Shown in pieces: positions 5,399 through 30,118 of a stretch of 52,399 nucleotides of DNA. The DNA is from a virus. Numbering within the stretch: the first letter of the stretch is position 1; the number at the start of each line of letters is the position of its first letter. The stretch covers positions 1 to 52,399 of the IMG/VR virus record IMGVR_UViG_3300021197_000246. One strand, 5' to 3'. Position numbers and translations under genes: made by a program. Below the pieces are notes generated by a model. The model saw only the letters and a list, made by a program, of their open reading frames with translations. It was not told where the DNA came from and did not search any database.

Positions 5399-5860
5399 TT
5401 AAGCAAGGTTGTTATTCTGCTGGTACAGGATTGTAACACGAACAAGACCTGCGTTTGTTGCAGCGGAGCCAGTTACAGTCAAACGAATGTCTGCTGTTCC
5501 TGTGTCCTGCCACGCCAATGCAGCGCCAGCTTGAGTTGTTGGATACTTGCGACCAGCAGTTGTTCCGATTGCAAACGTGTTGAGAATGGTAGCAGCACCA
5601 CCAACAGTGTCACCAACACTAAGGTTAGTTGCAGCGTTAGCTGCGGTGATAACATCAATCACACAGTCAATAATCTGAGAGTTTGCTGGGATAACAACGT
5701 CAGTTACAGATGCTGCGACTGCACCACCGGAAAGATCTACTGAGAATGTTTGAGCCATAACAACCTGACCGACATTGGCAATGTTGGTGCCAAGTGTTGT
5801 GCCTGTTGTGTTCTTAATCGTTCCGGCCTTAATAGGACCAGAGAAAGTAGTTGTAGCCAT
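5399..5860 (-). CDS. Putative head decoration protein, 153 aa
   Basis: A protein rich in Ala, Thr, Val and Gly, starting MATTTFSGPIKAGTIKNTTG. Later segments (VVIPANSQIIDCVIDVITAA, LSVGDTVGGAATIL, DIRLTVTGSAATNAGLVRV) look like a beta-sandwich, as in phage head or decoration proteins. It is the first gene after the capsid gene's terminator and is preceded by AGGAGTACAAA. A 7-bp hairpin lies just upstream of this ribosome site. The role as decoration or capsid-stabilising protein is inferred from composition and position. Confidence 0.55.
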   Translation of the reverse strand: MATTTFSGPIKAGTIKNTTGTTLGTNIANVGQVVMAQTFSVDLSGGAVAASVTDVVIPANSQIIDCVIDVITAANAATNLSVGDTVGGAATILNTFAIGTTAGRKYPTTQAGAALAWQDTGTADIRLTVTGSAATNAGLVRVTILYQQNNNLA

Positions 5861-5873
5861 TTTGTACTCCTGT

Positions 5874-5893
5874 CGTGGCTAGTGTCAGCCACG
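5874..5893 (-). promoter_or_regulatory. 5' leader hairpin before decoration-type gene
   Basis: CGTGGCT and AGCCACG form a perfect 7-bp stem around a 6-base loop, ending a few bases before the ribosome site AGGAG of the 5399-5860 gene. It could protect the 5' end or be an RNase processing site that raises expression of the downstream gene. No T-tract follows on this side, so it is not a terminator. Confidence 0.4.
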
Positions 5894-5925
5894 CTGTGCG
5901 GCTGTCAGGGATAAGTAACTATACA

Positions 5926-5975: not shown

Positions 5976-6887
5976 TTATGCTCCGGGTGAACCGAATACA
6001 CAACGTGGGTCTGAGAAGCCGAAGCTGTAACGCTCACGAGCCTTGAACCGCATGTTACCAGTGTCGAAGTCTGGGTCCATGTTGGTTGACAGAGCTGTAC
6101 GCTCAAAGTGCTTCAGACCGTTAGGTGCATCAGTCTTGATGAAGAATGCATCTGTGTCGGTCAGGTAGTCGTTGACTACATAGCCTTCAGGCAGCATGCC
6201 CATTGACTTCAGCGCGTTCACGTCGTTGTCGGCTGTTCCAACACGGAGGTTAGAAACAAGCAGACGCTCTGCAACGAATTGCAGTTGACGTGGAACAATC
6301 AGTTTCATGCCGCGAAGAGCAATGATGAGTCCACGCTCGTCAACGAAACCAGCGATGCTGATAAGAGCGTCTTCAAGTGAAGTCTCATTAAGGTCTGAGG
6401 CAGTTGCTGGCTCGTTTGAGAACGTGCCACCGCTTGTGAGCGGGTGGTTTGTCGCCATAAGAGCTACACCGTCACCACCAGCAAATGCGCCAGCGGAGAA
6501 GCCATTGTTGAGGACAGAAGCAGCCTTAACCTGCTTGGTGTGTGCCATAGAACGAGCAAGAGCGCGTGTATAGCGGGCACCAAGACGGTCATAAAGGTTA
6601 TCTTCGATAGCCTCTTCCGTGATTGAAAAGCCCATTGCGATGGTCTCGTGGTTATACCGTGCGGTATACGCCTCATTTGCATCGTCATAGGAGATTCCAG
6701 AACCCTCGTTTTTCACAGGGGCTGCACCGAAACCTGACAGCATGACCTCTTCTTCAAACGCCCGGTCTGATGACTCGGTGTCAAAGATCTCAGCATGCTG
6801 ACCTTCGTAGCGGTTGTATTCCATACCAAAGAGGGCGTTGAGGCCTGGTTCTAGTTCTTTGGCGAGTTGTGCGCGAGAAATAGCCAT
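5976..6887 (-). CDS. Major capsid protein, Mu gpT-like HK97 fold
   Basis: The 303-residue protein starts MAISRAQLAKELEPGLNALF. The order EPGLNALFGMEYNRY, a beta-region around EEVMLSGFGAAPVKNEG, YNHETIAMGFSITEEAIED, a spine-helix-like part LGARYTRALARSMAHTKQ and a late GLIIALRGMKLIVPRQLQF, then LTDTDAFFIKTDAPNGLKHF matches Mu gpT-type major head subunits in my memory. It lies after scaffold and decoration-type genes and before a strong terminator, as expected for an abundant product. No N-terminal delta domain is visible; assembly probably uses the separate scaffold at 7997-8875. Confidence 0.85.
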   Translation of the reverse strand: MAISRAQLAKELEPGLNALFGMEYNRYEGQHAEIFDTESSDRAFEEEVMLSGFGAAPVKNEGSGISYDDANEAYTARYNHETIAMGFSITEEAIEDNLYDRLGARYTRALARSMAHTKQVKAASVLNNGFSAGAFAGGDGVALMATNHPLTSGGTFSNEPATASDLNETSLEDALISIAGFVDERGLIIALRGMKLIVPRQLQFVAERLLVSNLRVGTADNDVNALKSMGMLPEGYVVNDYLTDTDAFFIKTDAPNGLKHFERTALSTNMDPDFDTGNMRFKARERYSFGFSDPRCVFGSPGA

Positions 6888-17924: not shown

Positions 17925-18158
17925 ATGTCAAAGCGCGAAACACTCAAGACCCGGTTGGCTGGCCGGATTTTTACAGCCACATTCACCAAGGCAGACGGCA
18001 CGACCCGGAAAGCATGGGGGCAGCTCGTCGAGGATGATCGCCTCAATGATCACCCCGACACGATCACATTCATTGACTTCGGTCTGGGCAAGCCCCGCCG
18101 CGCCAAGCTTGACGGACCGTACGAATTCCGGTCTGGCAAGACCGTGGTGTCGGGCTAA
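17925..18158 (+). CDS. Small early protein, DUF2693/SH3-like
   Basis: It starts MSKRETLKTRLAGRIFTATF and the segment ATFTKADGTTRKAWGQL recalls the TFTKxDGTxR signature of DUF2693-type small proteins, whose fold may be SH3-like (from memory). The rest is short beta strands (DTITFIDFGLGKPRRAKLDG) and ends TVVSG. Good ribosome site (AGGAGGTTCAT). It is the first gene rightward from the control region, so it is probably expressed early after entry. The function is unknown. Confidence 0.6.
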   Translation: MSKRETLKTRLAGRIFTATFTKADGTTRKAWGQLVEDDRLNDHPDTITFIDFGLGKPRRAKLDGPYEFRSGKTVVSG

Positions 18159-18391
18159 TGGGCAAGCTCACTCGCATTCACGTTAATCAGCACGTGATCC
18201 GCGCCAACGCCAAGAGTGGAGACCGTAACCCGGTCTTCACCGTCAAGGCAGGCAAGTCTAATCGATACGCCAGCGAGGTCGAGATTGAGGGCCGCTGCCG
18301 GCTGGTCTACAGCCCCGACAAGCCGCTGTCATGCGGGGCAAAGGTCTGGATCGAGGTTCTAGACGAGAACAACGTGGTCCTCAAGGAATGA
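18158..18391 (+). CDS. Small early protein, 77 aa, unknown
   Basis: It overlaps the previous stop by one base (TAATG). It starts MGKLTRIHVNQHVIRANAKS and continues GDRNPVFTVKAGKSNRYASE, then VEIEGRCRLVYSPDKPLSCG, mostly beta. I remember similar proteins with HVIRANAK and NPVFTVKAGKSNRY from marine phages, no function given. It ends 22 bases before the hammerhead ribozyme, so its transcript would be cut right after it. Confidence 0.6.
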   Translation: MGKLTRIHVNQHVIRANAKSGDRNPVFTVKAGKSNRYASEVEIEGRCRLVYSPDKPLSCGAKVWIEVLDENNVVLKE

Positions 18392-18396
18392 GGGCC

Positions 18397-18412
18397 GGGG
18401 GCTTCGGCCCCC
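18397..18412 (+). ncRNA. UUCG-capped hairpin at hammerhead 5' edge
   Basis: GGGGGC and GCCCCC pair around the stable tetraloop TTCG. No T-tract follows, so it is not an intrinsic terminator. Its last base directly abuts the hammerhead stem III. After ribozyme cleavage this hairpin would remain near the 3' end of the upstream transcript and would shield it against 3' exonucleases. Confidence 0.65.
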
Positions 18413-18463
18413 ACCGTCTGGCAGTGAGTGCTGCCACTGATGAGGCCAAAAGGCCGAAACGGT
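18413..18463 (+). ncRNA. Type III hammerhead ribozyme
   Basis: All conserved parts are present in order. Stem III 5' strand ACCGU (18413-18417) and cleavage-site C 18418 form the GUC triplet. Stem I is UGGCAG/CUGCCA with the loop UGAGUG (18419-18436). Core CUGAUGA follows at 18437-18443. Stem II is GGCC, loop AAAA, GGCC (18444-18455). Core GAA is at 18456-18458, and the stem III 3' strand ACGGU is at 18459-18463. Every stem pairs perfectly. Predicted self-cleavage is between 18418 and 18419. Helix III is open, so this is type III. It would separate the upstream two-gene message from the winged-helix message beginning at 18490. Identification rests on the known consensus; activity is predicted. 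Confidence 0.93.
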
Positions 18464-18489
18464 AAACATAGTCATGGAGGATATGACAA

Positions 18490-18876
18490 ATGATTAAGAC
18501 AGTATCGACTATTTTCGACAAGGTTCAGACTGTTGAGCTGGAGCGGACAACCTACGGATATGATCTTTGGATCTGGCACCTAGACGGGGACGGCAAGCGC
18601 GAGCTTAACCGCATAGAGATTGACGGGGATAACATTGAGGTCCGGGCCACGGACCGCCGGCCCGCCAAGCCAAAAGCCATGTTTGCAAAGGACACGGTGG
18701 CCCGCTGCAAAGAGCTGCTAACCAGCGGGGGCAAGTTTACGGTCCCGCAGCTCTCGACCTTTCTGGGCCTCAAGAAAAGCAGCGTTCACTCGCTGATCTG
18801 GGAGATGCGCAAGGTCCATAAGCTGGACGTGAAGAGCGAGAAGACTGGCAAGCGGAACAAGCGTTTCTCAATTTAA
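18490..18876 (+). CDS. Winged-helix DNA-binding protein, 128 aa
   Basis: It starts MIKTVSTIFDKVQTVELERT after GGAGG (18476-18480); a 4-codon ATG frame just upstream, overlapping the start, is probably chance. The N-terminal half is beta-rich with YGYDLWIWHLDGDGKRELNR. The C-terminal half is a winged helix: VARCKELLTSGGKFTVPQLS, TFLGLKKSSVHSLIWEMRKV and HKLDVKSEKTGKRNKRFSI, with helix-turn-helix and wing. It is a candidate transcription regulator of the early region. Its mRNA would carry a 5'-OH end produced by the hammerhead. Confidence 0.65.
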   Translation: MIKTVSTIFDKVQTVELERTTYGYDLWIWHLDGDGKRELNRIEIDGDNIEVRATDRRPAKPKAMFAKDTVARCKELLTSGGKFTVPQLSTFLGLKKSSVHSLIWEMRKVHKLDVKSEKTGKRNKRFSI

Positions 18877-18892
18877 CAGCGATAAAAAACTT

Positions 18893-18924
18893 GCCTACAC
18901 CGTCCTTGATGGTGTAGGCTTTTA
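18893..18924 (+). terminator. Rho-independent terminator after winged-helix gene
   Basis: GCCTACACC and GGTGTAGGC (9 bp) pair around a 9-base loop, followed by TTTTATT. It ends the transcript that starts at or before the hammerhead. The next gene begins at 18952. Confidence 0.8.
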
Positions 18925-19259: not shown

Positions 19260-19275
19260 AACCTCCCATGACTTG

Positions 19276-19307
19276 CCCCCAGACTTCGGTCTGGGGGTCT
19301 TTTCTTT
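19276..19307 (+). terminator. Strong terminator with TTCG loop
   Basis: CCCCCAGAC and GTCTGGGGG form a 9-bp perfect stem capped by TTCG and followed by TCTTTTCTTT. It closes the transcription unit of the 18952-19224 gene and its pseudoknot. Confidence 0.9.
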
Positions 19308-28441: not shown

Positions 28442-29008
28442 ATGAGCGATGTGTTTTCGCTGTTTGAAGAAGAGGCAGTCAACGCCGATAAGTTTGACAC
28501 AATTGGGAAGGAGGGCGCTTCGGAGCTTTCCAACCTTATCCGTCGATCTATCCAGATCGATCAGGAGATCAAGGATGCAGAACAGCATCTCAAGGATCTC
28601 AAGTTCAAGAAAAGAAAAGTGAACGAAGAAGATATCCCTATGCTCATGGAAGAGATGGGCATGGATAGGGTTGACGTGGATGGTAACAAGGTTACTCTCC
28701 GCCAGTTCGTTCATGCCCGTATCACCGAGGACAAACGCGATGAGGCTTTTGGTTTCTTGCGGTCTATCGGTGAGGCCGACATCATCAAGAATGACGTGAC
28801 AGTATCCTTCTCTGCTGGGCAAGACAACCAAGCGGGTGCCGTGGTCGATGACCTGCGCAACCAAGGGTTGGAACCAGCGCAGAAGACACACATTCATCCT
28901 ATGACGTTGAAGTCTTGGGTAAAGAACCGCATAGAAAGCGGTCAGGAAATAGACTTCGATACCTTCGGAGTATTTGTCGGCACAGAAGCCAAGATCACAA
29001 GGAGCTAG
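28442..29008 (+). CDS. Conserved hypothetical replication-operon protein, 188 aa
   Basis: It starts MSDVFSLFEEEAVNADKFDT after AAGGAG. A coiled coil (RRSIQIDQEIKDAEQHLKDL and KFKKRKVNEEDIP) precedes a mixed domain with DRVDVDGNKVTLRQFVHARI, SFSAGQDNQAGAVVDDLRNQ and a final THIHPMTLKSWVKNRIESGQ. The last segment recalls a conserved phage block near SSB or recombination genes, possibly a nuclease-inhibitor or SSB-associated protein. No certain family. It is preceded by the structured RNA and followed by a winged-helix gene. Confidence 0.55.
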   Translation: MSDVFSLFEEEAVNADKFDTIGKEGASELSNLIRRSIQIDQEIKDAEQHLKDLKFKKRKVNEEDIPMLMEEMGMDRVDVDGNKVTLRQFVHARITEDKRDEAFGFLRSIGEADIIKNDVTVSFSAGQDNQAGAVVDDLRNQGLEPAQKTHIHPMTLKSWVKNRIESGQEIDFDTFGVFVGTEAKITRS

Positions 29009-29010
29009 TT

Positions 29011-29325
29011 ATGGAAGATGTAAGAACTCTTTTCAGAGCAGACGCGCCTGACACGAGCATTGAGGCTGCATGCAGTATAGATCCGTCAAAGTTAGAGGGG
29101 CTTGTCTTACGAGCGATCATGGCATCCCCAAACGGGTGTATTTCCGACGATGTTCGTAGGTATTGTAAGGAAAAATTTAATATCAGGTCTTACTCCTCAG
29201 TGACGGCTAGGTACTCCTCGCTGGCGAGAAAAGGCCTGATTCAATACACAGGTGAAAGAAGGCCCGGTGAAAGCGGAAGAGGACAACGGGTAATGAAAGT
29301 AAACATGGAGCAAAAAAATGGCTGA
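29011..29325 (+). CDS. Winged-helix protein, 104 aa
   Basis: I chose ATG 29011 with AAGGAG upstream. It starts MEDVRTLFRADAPDTSIEAA. LEGLVLRAIMASPNGCISDD, VRRYCKEKFNIRSYSSVTAR and YSSLARKGLIQYTGERRPGE form a winged helix-turn-helix (recognition part SYSSVTARYSSLARKG). It may regulate the operon or assist replication initiation. It overlaps the SSB-like gene by 8 bases. Confidence 0.65.
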   Translation: MEDVRTLFRADAPDTSIEAACSIDPSKLEGLVLRAIMASPNGCISDDVRRYCKEKFNIRSYSSVTARYSSLARKGLIQYTGERRPGESGRGQRVMKVNMEQKNG

Positions 29326-30118
29326 TACAGCAGTAGTAGAAAAGAAAGAAAACCTTCCCTCAACTATCATGGCTGACATGGCTCAGTTCGCTGGTGAGGG
29401 GATGGATAGCATCACCGCAGATGATATGCAGATCCCGTTCTTGCGGGTGCTGCAAGCTCTGTCGCCAGAGATCCAGAAGAACGACCCCAAGTTTATCAAG
29501 GGCGCATCGGCTGGTGACCTAGTCAACACCGTTACTGGTGAGACTTGGGATGGAGACGAGGGTGTCGTGGTCATACCTTGCGGGTACACCCTCAAGTATC
29601 TTGAGTTTGGTTTGCGTGACTCAGGTGGTGGCTTTCAGGGTGAAATCCCTGCCAACCATCCCGACCTTGCCAACACTACCCGCGAGGGTAATGCGGAGAT
29701 GCTACCAAGTGGCAATGAGTTGGTCCGTTCAGCCCAGCATCTTGTGATGATTGTGGACACCAAGACAGGTGCTACACAGCAAGCGATCTGTGACATGAAG
29801 AAGACCCAGCTCAAAGTCTCACGCCGCTGGAATACTCAGATGCGTATGGTTCAGTATGACGGTCCTAATGGTCTGTTTAACCCACCTATGTGGGGCACTG
29901 CGTGGCGTCTTACAGTGGTCTCAGAGAGCAACGACAGGGGTACATGGTACAACTATGCTATCGCCCGTGTAGAGCCATCCGAGGTGCCAGATGCAGCATT
30001 CATGGCTGCGCGTTCCTTCTTCCAGTCGTTCAAGTCAGGTGAGGTACAGACCTCCGCTGGCACGAGTGATGAGATGACTAAGAAGCAGGATAACGGCGGA
30101 GACGATATCCCATTCTAG
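29318..30118 (+). CDS. Single-stranded DNA-binding protein candidate (SSB-tip)
   Basis: The 266-residue protein starts MADTAVVEKKENLPSTIMAD and ends with EMTKKQDNGGDDIPF, the acidic DDIPF tip that in bacterial SSBs recruits partner proteins. The body is a beta-rich domain (EGVVVIPCGYTLKYLEFGLR, QLKVSRRWNTQMRMVQYDGP), with a helix at the end. The tip is strong evidence; the core does not match classical OB-fold motifs that I recognise. It is encoded before the primase, with replication genes, as expected for an SSB. Confidence 0.7.
   Translation: MADTAVVEKKENLPSTIMADMAQFAGEGMDSITADDMQIPFLRVLQALSPEIQKNDPKFIKGASAGDLVNTVTGETWDGDEGVVVIPCGYTLKYLEFGLRDSGGGFQGEIPANHPDLANTTREGNAEMLPSGNELVRSAQHLVMIVDTKTGATQQAICDMKKTQLKVSRRWNTQMRMVQYDGPNGLFNPPMWGTAWRLTVVSESNDRGTWYNYAIARVEPSEVPDAAFMAARSFFQSFKSGEVQTSAGTSDEMTKKQDNGGDDIPF

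What the first reader, a model, noticed from the sequence alone, without database searches (positions are those of the whole stretch)
18413..18463. Perfect type III hammerhead ribozyme between early phage genes
All core bases and three perfect helices are present: stem III ACCGU/ACGGU, GUC cleavage site, stem I with 6-base loop, CUGAUGA, stem II GGCC/AAAA/GGCC, GAA. It lies 22 bases after one small gene's stop and 27 bases before a winged-helix regulator gene, with a UUCG-capped hairpin directly 5'. Cleavage would split a polycistronic early message into an upstream part with a protected 3' end and a downstream regulator message with a 5'-OH. Hammerheads are known from some phages and marine metagenomes; this one as an operon splitter before a regulator looks specific and testable.
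Basis: partly seen in the sequence, partly recalled or inferred. Interest (0 to 1): 0.92.

Follow-up and report, generated by a model that had tools for sequence, protein, structure and literature searches.

The report
Phage hairpin-capped type III hammerhead ribozyme
A virus of bacteria carries, between two of its genes, a small RNA that very probably cuts itself, with a tight hairpin placed just before the cut; related phages repeat this arrangement, which suggests that the ribozyme turns one long message into two shorter ones with protected ends.

Summary
Window 18413-18463 (+) is a canonical type III hammerhead ribozyme (HHR): every core base is present, the three helices are perfect, and the cut falls after C18418. 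Rfam RF00008 matches at 45.2 bits (E 5e-9 in 301 nt), slightly under its curated cut-off of 48.5. Relatives carry three compensatory pair changes, one of them between the window and a 97%-identical phage. It is not unusual: a single exact core pattern finds >120 stretches in IMG/VR, and Perreault et al. 2011 already proposed that prophage HHRs split polycistronic RNAs. It is also not specific to a regulator, because the same module precedes unrelated genes. What seems new is the hairpin directly 5'. Among non-redundant phage HHRs, 42% of 106 type III have a stable hairpin abutting the ribozyme, against 4% of 192 type I; the first set was significant, a second set replicated, a third, small set only pointed the same way. 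The hairpins lack U-tracts. Type III cleavage leaves the ribozyme on the downstream RNA, so the upstream mRNA needs its own 3' cap; type I supplies the cap itself. I read the element as a 'cut-and-cap' mRNA processing site. Cleavage and RNA stability were not measured.

The parts
18413..18463 (+). Type III hammerhead ribozyme; cleavage predicted between C18418 and U18419
   Evidence: sequence; RF00008 45.2 bits, E 5.4e-9; compensatory changes in relatives
18413..18417 (+). stem III 5' strand ACCGU (pairs with 18459-18463)
   Evidence: C-G to U-A change in L126
18419..18436 (+). stem I hairpin UGGCAG-UGAGUG-CUGCCA; becomes the 5' end of the downstream RNA
   Evidence: U-A versus C-G at 18419/18436 in L002; G-C to A-U in L050
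18437..18443 (+). core CUGAUGA
18444..18455 (+). stem II GGCC-AAAA-GGCC
   Evidence: no variation among 11 distinct relatives
18456..18463 (+). core GAA and stem III 3' strand ACGGU
18397..18412 (+). UUCG-capped 6-bp hairpin GGGGGC-UUCG-GCCCCC abutting stem III; predicted 3' cap of the upstream mRNA
   Evidence: present with UUCG, UCCG, GAAA or AUCC loops in all 15 lineage members that could be scored, the window included; general for type III phage HHRs
17925..18158 (+). upstream gene 1, 77 aa, partial WYL_2 Sm-like match just below cut-off
18158..18391 (+). upstream gene 2, 77 aa, phrog_8676 (unknown function); stop 21 nt before the ribozyme
18476..18481 (+). ribosome-binding site GGAGGA before ATG 18490
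   Evidence: sequence
18490..18876 (+). downstream gene, 128 aa, N-terminal beta part and C-terminal winged helix-turn-helix
   Evidence: weak Ren-like PHROG match E 0.007; Foldseek gives ArsR/MarR-type winged helices at weak E
18893..18919 (+). intrinsic-terminator-like hairpin followed by TTTTATT; likely 3' end of the downstream RNA
   Evidence: same in L002

Best explanation
The element is a 'cut-and-cap' mRNA processing site made of a stable hairpin plus a canonical type III hammerhead ribozyme. As RNA polymerase passes from the two small 77-aa genes into the winged-helix gene, the hammerhead folds and cuts its own RNA after C18418. The upstream two-gene mRNA then ends in the UUCG hairpin plus a 6-nt tail with a 2',3'-cyclic phosphate. 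The downstream mRNA starts with a 5'-OH directly on the stem I hairpin, keeps the rest of the ribozyme as its leader, and ends at the terminator at 18893-18919. Both halves would have structured ends that slow 3' exonucleases and 5'-end-dependent decay, so the two gene products can have separate lifetimes without a terminator or promoter between them. Shown: sequence, pairing, covariation, gene order, terminator-like site, and the statistical link between the hairpin and type III topology. Inferred: cleavage in cells, stabilisation, and effect on expression.
For: Complete core and helices; RF00008 E 5.4e-9; 0 calls in reversed sequence against 838 forward; three compensatory pairs in 11 distinct relatives and 100% of cells paired against 16-60% when slid, one of them U-A to C-G against a phage 97% identical over 6.4 kb. 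Hairpin module: in 15 scored lineage members the hairpin abuts stem III although the genes on both sides differ. Topology test: a hairpin of -5 kcal/mol or better within 6 nt 5' of the HHR in 35/73 type III against 4/119 type I (p 8e-14), replicated on another stem II pattern 8/16 against 2/40 (p 3e-4); total 45/106 against 7/192 after a third set. Matched gene ends in the same contigs: 16% against 60% (p 3e-10); holds in four GC strata. The spike is only at 0-5 nt from the HHR. Tail from hairpin to cut median 6 nt; none of 44 has 6 or more T in the next 8 nt. Type I HHRs sit at the stop codon (median 0 nt) and have GNRA/UNCG loops on 41% of stem III hairpins, which become the upstream 3' end. 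All 182 loci with more than one HHR have them on one strand. Prophage HHRs of the same kind cut in vitro and, in one case, in E. coli (PMC3088659).
Against: No cleavage, 5'-end or RNA-decay data for this phage. The predicted minimum-energy fold of 18387-18490 is not the hammerhead (-45.4 kcal/mol; -44.5 with the box's settings against -33.7 for the ribozyme fold drawn without the ribosome-site hairpin); for the ribozyme alone the gap is 1.5 kcal/mol, and core and loop contacts are not modelled. In Perreault 2011, 4 of 18 consensus HHRs tested were inactive in vitro. Rfam score is under the curated cut-off. More than half of type III HHRs have no perfect abutting hairpin, and the third, small set (2/14 against 1/34) is not significant alone, although some of its members have bulged hairpins there. 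The sample rests on exact stem II patterns in one viral collection.
Confidence: 0.72

Rival explanations
1. The hairpin is a folding insulator: it keeps the upstream coding RNA from pairing with the ribozyme, and cleavage itself (not end protection) is what matters.
For: The hairpin abuts the ribozyme with no gap in most cases (29 of 44) and could stack on stem III.
Against: Type I HHRs have an equally exposed 5' strand (stem I) next to coding sequence, yet lack the hairpin (4% against 42%). Insulation alone does not predict this difference.
Confidence: 0.15
2. The hairpin is a weak or U-less transcription terminator and the ribozyme only trims read-through RNA.
For: GC-rich UUCG hairpin right after a stop codon; the same phage has GC-rich hairpins with U-tracts at 18893-18919 and 19275-19298, the second with a UUCG loop.
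Against: No U-tract after the hairpin here (ACCGUCUG) or in any of 44 type III cases (0 with 6 or more T in 8 nt); the hairpin follows ribozyme topology rather than gene ends.
Confidence: 0.1
3. Cleavage lowers expression of the downstream gene: the 5'-OH RNA without a triphosphate, with the ribozyme remnant as leader, is translated or lives less well, so the HHR is a brake on the regulator gene.
For: The ribosome-binding site lies 13 nt after the ribozyme and forms a small hairpin in the predicted fold; a ribozyme in a leader is a known way to destroy mRNAs (own knowledge, e.g. glmS).
Against: 5'-OH on a flush hairpin is usually protective in bacteria (own knowledge); the ribosome-site hairpin is not kept in L002; the module precedes unrelated genes.
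Confidence: 0.15
4. The ribozyme is a dead relic or a passenger of recombination at gene borders with no function.
For: The module lies at a mosaic junction with different genes on both sides.
Against: Core unchanged and pairs kept through compensatory change in divergent relatives; only one of 17 lineage loci, L127, has a broken stem II pair.
Confidence: 0.05

Closest known systems
Type III hammerhead ribozyme, Rfam RF00008 (viroid-like satellites, plants, prokaryotes, phages)
   Same: Core, helices, GUC site, open stem III; RF00008 is the only match listed at E up to 10
   Different: Short stem I and II loops (UGAGUG, AAAA), score 3 bits under the curated cut-off; hairpin fused to the 5' side
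Prophage HHRs and tandem HHR arrays of Perreault et al. 2011 (PMC3088659; A. tumefaciens, Azorhizobium, Clostridium)
   Same: HHRs between phage genes, proposed to process long phage RNAs into operon- or gene-length mRNAs; shown to cut in vitro and one array in E. coli
   Different: Only one HHR here; no hairpin rule or difference by HHR type is described in the text read
HHphage variant of haloviruses HF1/HF2 (PMC3088659)
   Same: HHR 13 nt before an early gene; mapped transcript 5' end lies within 3 nt of the cut
   Different: Variant core and halophilic archaeal hosts; the window has the standard core
Theta ribozymes of gut phages (PMC10879173)
   Same: Self-cleaving ribozyme used by phages to process phage RNA
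   Different: HDV-like fold, linked to tRNAs, not mRNAs
Intrinsic terminators and 3' stabilising hairpins of bacterial mRNAs
   Same: GC-rich tetraloop hairpin plus a tail of about 6 nt at the mRNA 3' end
   Different: Here the end would be made by ribozyme cleavage, without stopping RNA polymerase, and carries a cyclic phosphate

Membership tests
Hammerhead ribozyme, type III | Catalytic core CUGAUGA ... GAA and NUH cleavage triplet | tested here: met
   18437-18443, 18456-18458, GUC 18416-18418
Hammerhead ribozyme, type III | Three helices around the core, with U16.1-A15.1 and stem II closing G-C | tested here: met
   Perfect 5, 6 and 4 bp helices; all 165 cells paired in 11 relatives
Hammerhead ribozyme, type III | Type III topology (stem III open-ended, stems I and II closed by loops) | tested here: met
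Hammerhead ribozyme, type III | Evolutionary support for pairing (compensatory change) | tested here: met
   3 pairs with change on both sides, shuffles 0.4 on average, 3 of 500 as high
Hammerhead ribozyme, type III | Score at or above the Rfam RF00008 curated cut-off | tested here: inconclusive
   45.2 bits against 48.5; E 5.4e-9 over 301 nt; the cut-off is a curator's threshold, not a defining feature, and short loops cost score
Hammerhead ribozyme, type III | Loop I-loop II tertiary contact for activity at low Mg2+ | not testable with these tools
   Loop pairs of this kind (UGAGUG or UGUGUG with AAAA or GAAA) recur in other type III phage HHRs
Hammerhead ribozyme, type III | Self-cleavage after H17 | not testable with these tools
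   needs RNA
Phage/prophage HHRs that process polycistronic RNA (Perreault 2011) | Lies between same-strand phage genes | tested here: met
Phage/prophage HHRs that process polycistronic RNA (Perreault 2011) | Several HHRs flank genes or gene blocks (the clustered sub-group only) | tested here: not met
   One only in this record; 182 other loci have two or more, always on one strand
Intrinsic terminator | U-tract after the hairpin | tested here: not met
   ACCGUCUG follows 18412; not reported as terminator-like

The most novel reading that the evidence does not exclude
Phage hammerheads follow a topology rule that reveals their job: each is built so that self-cleavage leaves the upstream mRNA ending just behind a stable hairpin. 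Type I uses its own stem III hairpin (1 nt from the cut) and is placed at the stop codon; type III, which leaves its body on the downstream RNA, adds a separate hairpin about 6 nt before the cut. Phage HHRs would thus be ribozyme-made mRNA 3' ends that let RNA polymerase run on, and 3'-end protection would be their selected function.
Probability: 0.55. Interest if true: 0.68.

Novelty: new member of a known kind. Interest (0 to 1): 0.52.

Why it matters
What the many hammerheads in phage genomes do has been an open question since 2011. The ribozyme itself is one more member of a large group, but its attached hairpin led to a rule that separates type I from type III phage hammerheads and points to a testable function: making and protecting mRNA ends inside an operon. 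If true, it explains placement, topology and loops at once, and gives a compact part (hairpin plus ribozyme) for making capped, separable mRNAs in bacteria.

Tried and rejected
Default Rfam scan missed the HHR; the E-value scan found it. Mu-like phage, my first guess from the RF03012 hit, was dropped: the portal is SU10-like, and polymerase A, helicase and Pam3-type genes are present. BLAST of the region and of the regulator against named phages gave nothing; the ribozyme alone matched only two Rhizobium phages weakly. The lineage pattern in bacterial genomes found nothing. The 2-sequence structure model was too poor; 6 sequences gave a usable one. Type II HHRs were too few to test (10 clusters). 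The idea that the ribosome-site hairpin or an extended upstream hairpin acts as a switch was dropped because neither is kept in relatives. Literature searches for an upstream hairpin tied to HHR type found none in the held open-access library; subscription papers were not covered.

Full report
What is there. At 18413-18463 on the + strand lies a complete type III hammerhead ribozyme: ACCGU-C^-UGGCAG(UGAGUG)CUGCCA-CUGAUGA-GGCC(AAAA)GGCC-GAA-ACGGU. Rfam gives RF00008 at 45.2 bits, E 5.4e-9 for 301 nt, just below the curated 48.5, which is why a default Rfam scan is silent. A script that looks for the core with three helices finds 838 hammerheads in the fetched loci and none in the same DNA read backwards, so a chance match is very unlikely.

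Conservation. A phage that is 97% identical over 6.4 kb (L002, IMGVR_UViG_3300030103_000728) has the same ribozyme with a U-A to C-G change at the first pair of stem I and one loop change. A pattern for this stem I finds 15 IMG/VR stretches, and a looser reading of the fetched loci adds a few more. In 11 distinct members every one of 165 pair cells is a standard pair and three pairs change on both sides, in stems I and III; sliding the partners gives 16-60%. All 15 members that could be scored, the window included, carry a GC-rich hairpin that ends against stem III, with loops UUCG, UCCG, GAAA or AUCC and an outer pair that varies between G-C and A-U. The gene before the module is a homologue of one of the window's two 77-aa genes or something else, and the gene after it is either a winged-helix protein or an unrelated small, apparently membrane-spanning protein. 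The unit that is kept is hairpin plus ribozyme, not its neighbours.

Setting. The record is a 52,399-base tailed-phage contig with structural genes on the minus strand (terminase, SU10-like portal, capsid) and replication genes on the plus strand (primase-like, SNF2 and UvrD helicases, DNA polymerase A). The ribozyme follows the second small gene of the plus-strand block. A scan finds no sigma-70-like promoter between the genes, and a terminator-like site at 18893-18919 after the next gene. That gene encodes a 128-aa protein whose C-terminal half is predicted as a winged helix (helices 67-78, 85-92, 96-108, strands 115-118 and 124-127); a structure search gives ArsR- and MarR-type winged helices among others, none below E 0.001. 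'Early' and 'regulator' are inferences.

Is the hairpin meaningful? A type III hammerhead leaves its body on the downstream RNA, so the upstream mRNA would end in a bare 5-6 nt strand. A type I hammerhead leaves its body, ending in the stem III hairpin, on the upstream mRNA. If 3'-end protection matters, extra hairpins should precede type III and not type I. I clustered HHRs with flanks from several IMG/VR scans. Perfect-stem hairpins of -5 kcal/mol or better ending within 6 nt of the HHR: 35/73 type III against 4/119 type I in the first set (p 8e-14), 8/16 against 2/40 in an independent second set (p 3e-4). In a third, small set it was 2/14 against 1/34 (p 0.2), with several bulged or distant hairpins seen by eye. 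After re-clustering, the total is 45/106 against 7/192. The idea arose from the first set, so the second and third sets are the real tests: one clear, one only in the same direction. Intergenic gene ends in the same contigs, matched for distance from the stop, show 16% against 60%. The effect holds in all four GC strata, at all thresholds from -3 to -12, and only at 0-5 nt from the ribozyme. None of 44 hairpins is followed by 6 or more T in 8 nt, so they are not intrinsic terminators. The tail from hairpin to cut is 6 nt in the median.

Type I fits the same picture from the other side. These ribozymes begin at the stop codon (median distance 0), and their stem III hairpin, which would be the new 3' end, has a GNRA or UNCG loop in 41%. 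Loops I and II cannot be used as a neutral comparison because they make tertiary contacts. All 182 loci with two or more HHRs have them on a single strand.

Mechanism. I commit to a cut-and-cap processing site: polymerase reads through, the ribozyme cuts, the upstream mRNA keeps a hairpin plus a 6-nt tail with a cyclic phosphate, and the downstream mRNA keeps a 5'-OH hairpin start and a terminator end. Sequence, pairing and the topology rule are shown; cleavage in cells and stabilisation are inferred. Caveats: the nearest-neighbour fold prefers other structures, though such models leave out the core and loop contacts, and 4 of 18 consensus HHRs tested by Perreault et al. were inactive in vitro.

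Comparison with what is known. Hammerheads in prophages, their placement around genes, cleavage in vitro and in E. coli, and the idea of splitting long phage RNAs were published in 2011 (PMC3088659); a 2017 review still calls the role in prokaryotes open (PMC6155905). The ribozyme is therefore a new member of a known kind. I found no mention of a hairpin tied to HHR type in the papers I could search, but subscription papers are not held, so novelty of the rule is provisional.

Noticed in passing
window 5858-5910 (-): Rfam Mu-gpT-DE RNA (RF03012, 67.7 bits), just downstream of a capsid gene with Mu gpT-like similarity (5976-6887 -), in a phage that is otherwise not Mu-like.
   Followed up: partly
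window 28442-29008 and 29318-30118 (+): Homologues of phage Pam3 gp33 and gp34 (Pfam DUF7307, Pam3_Gp34), a hint at host or lineage.
   Followed up: no
window 19275-19298 (+): Terminator-like GCCCCCAGACUUCGGUCUGGGGGU with T-rich tail, a further UUCG hairpin at an mRNA end.
   Followed up: no
L017 (3300031366_000001), L224, L510, L524, L258, L043, L057: Arrays of three to seven HHRs on one strand between small genes; L017 alone has seven.
   Followed up: partly
type I HHRs in IMG/VR loci, e.g. L023, L038, L048: The upstream stop codon often overlaps or abuts stem I, so ribozyme and stop codon share bases.
   Followed up: partly
L051 (3300004829_000240): Three type III HHRs around consecutive genes, two with very stable abutting hairpins (-22 and -24 kcal/mol) and one without.
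   Followed up: no
L127: Lineage member with one broken stem II pair (GGCC/GGAC); decay or sequencing error.
   Followed up: no
L495 (Rhizobium phage RHEph01) 650-735: HHR-like element with only about 3 bp in stem III, antisense to an annotated hypothetical gene, which may be a wrong gene call.
   Followed up: partly
Genome contigs against viral contigs: The same core pattern gives 18 stretches in 257 Gb of bacterial and archaeal genomes but more than 120 in the viral collection, so these HHRs are strongly tied to phages.
   Followed up: yes
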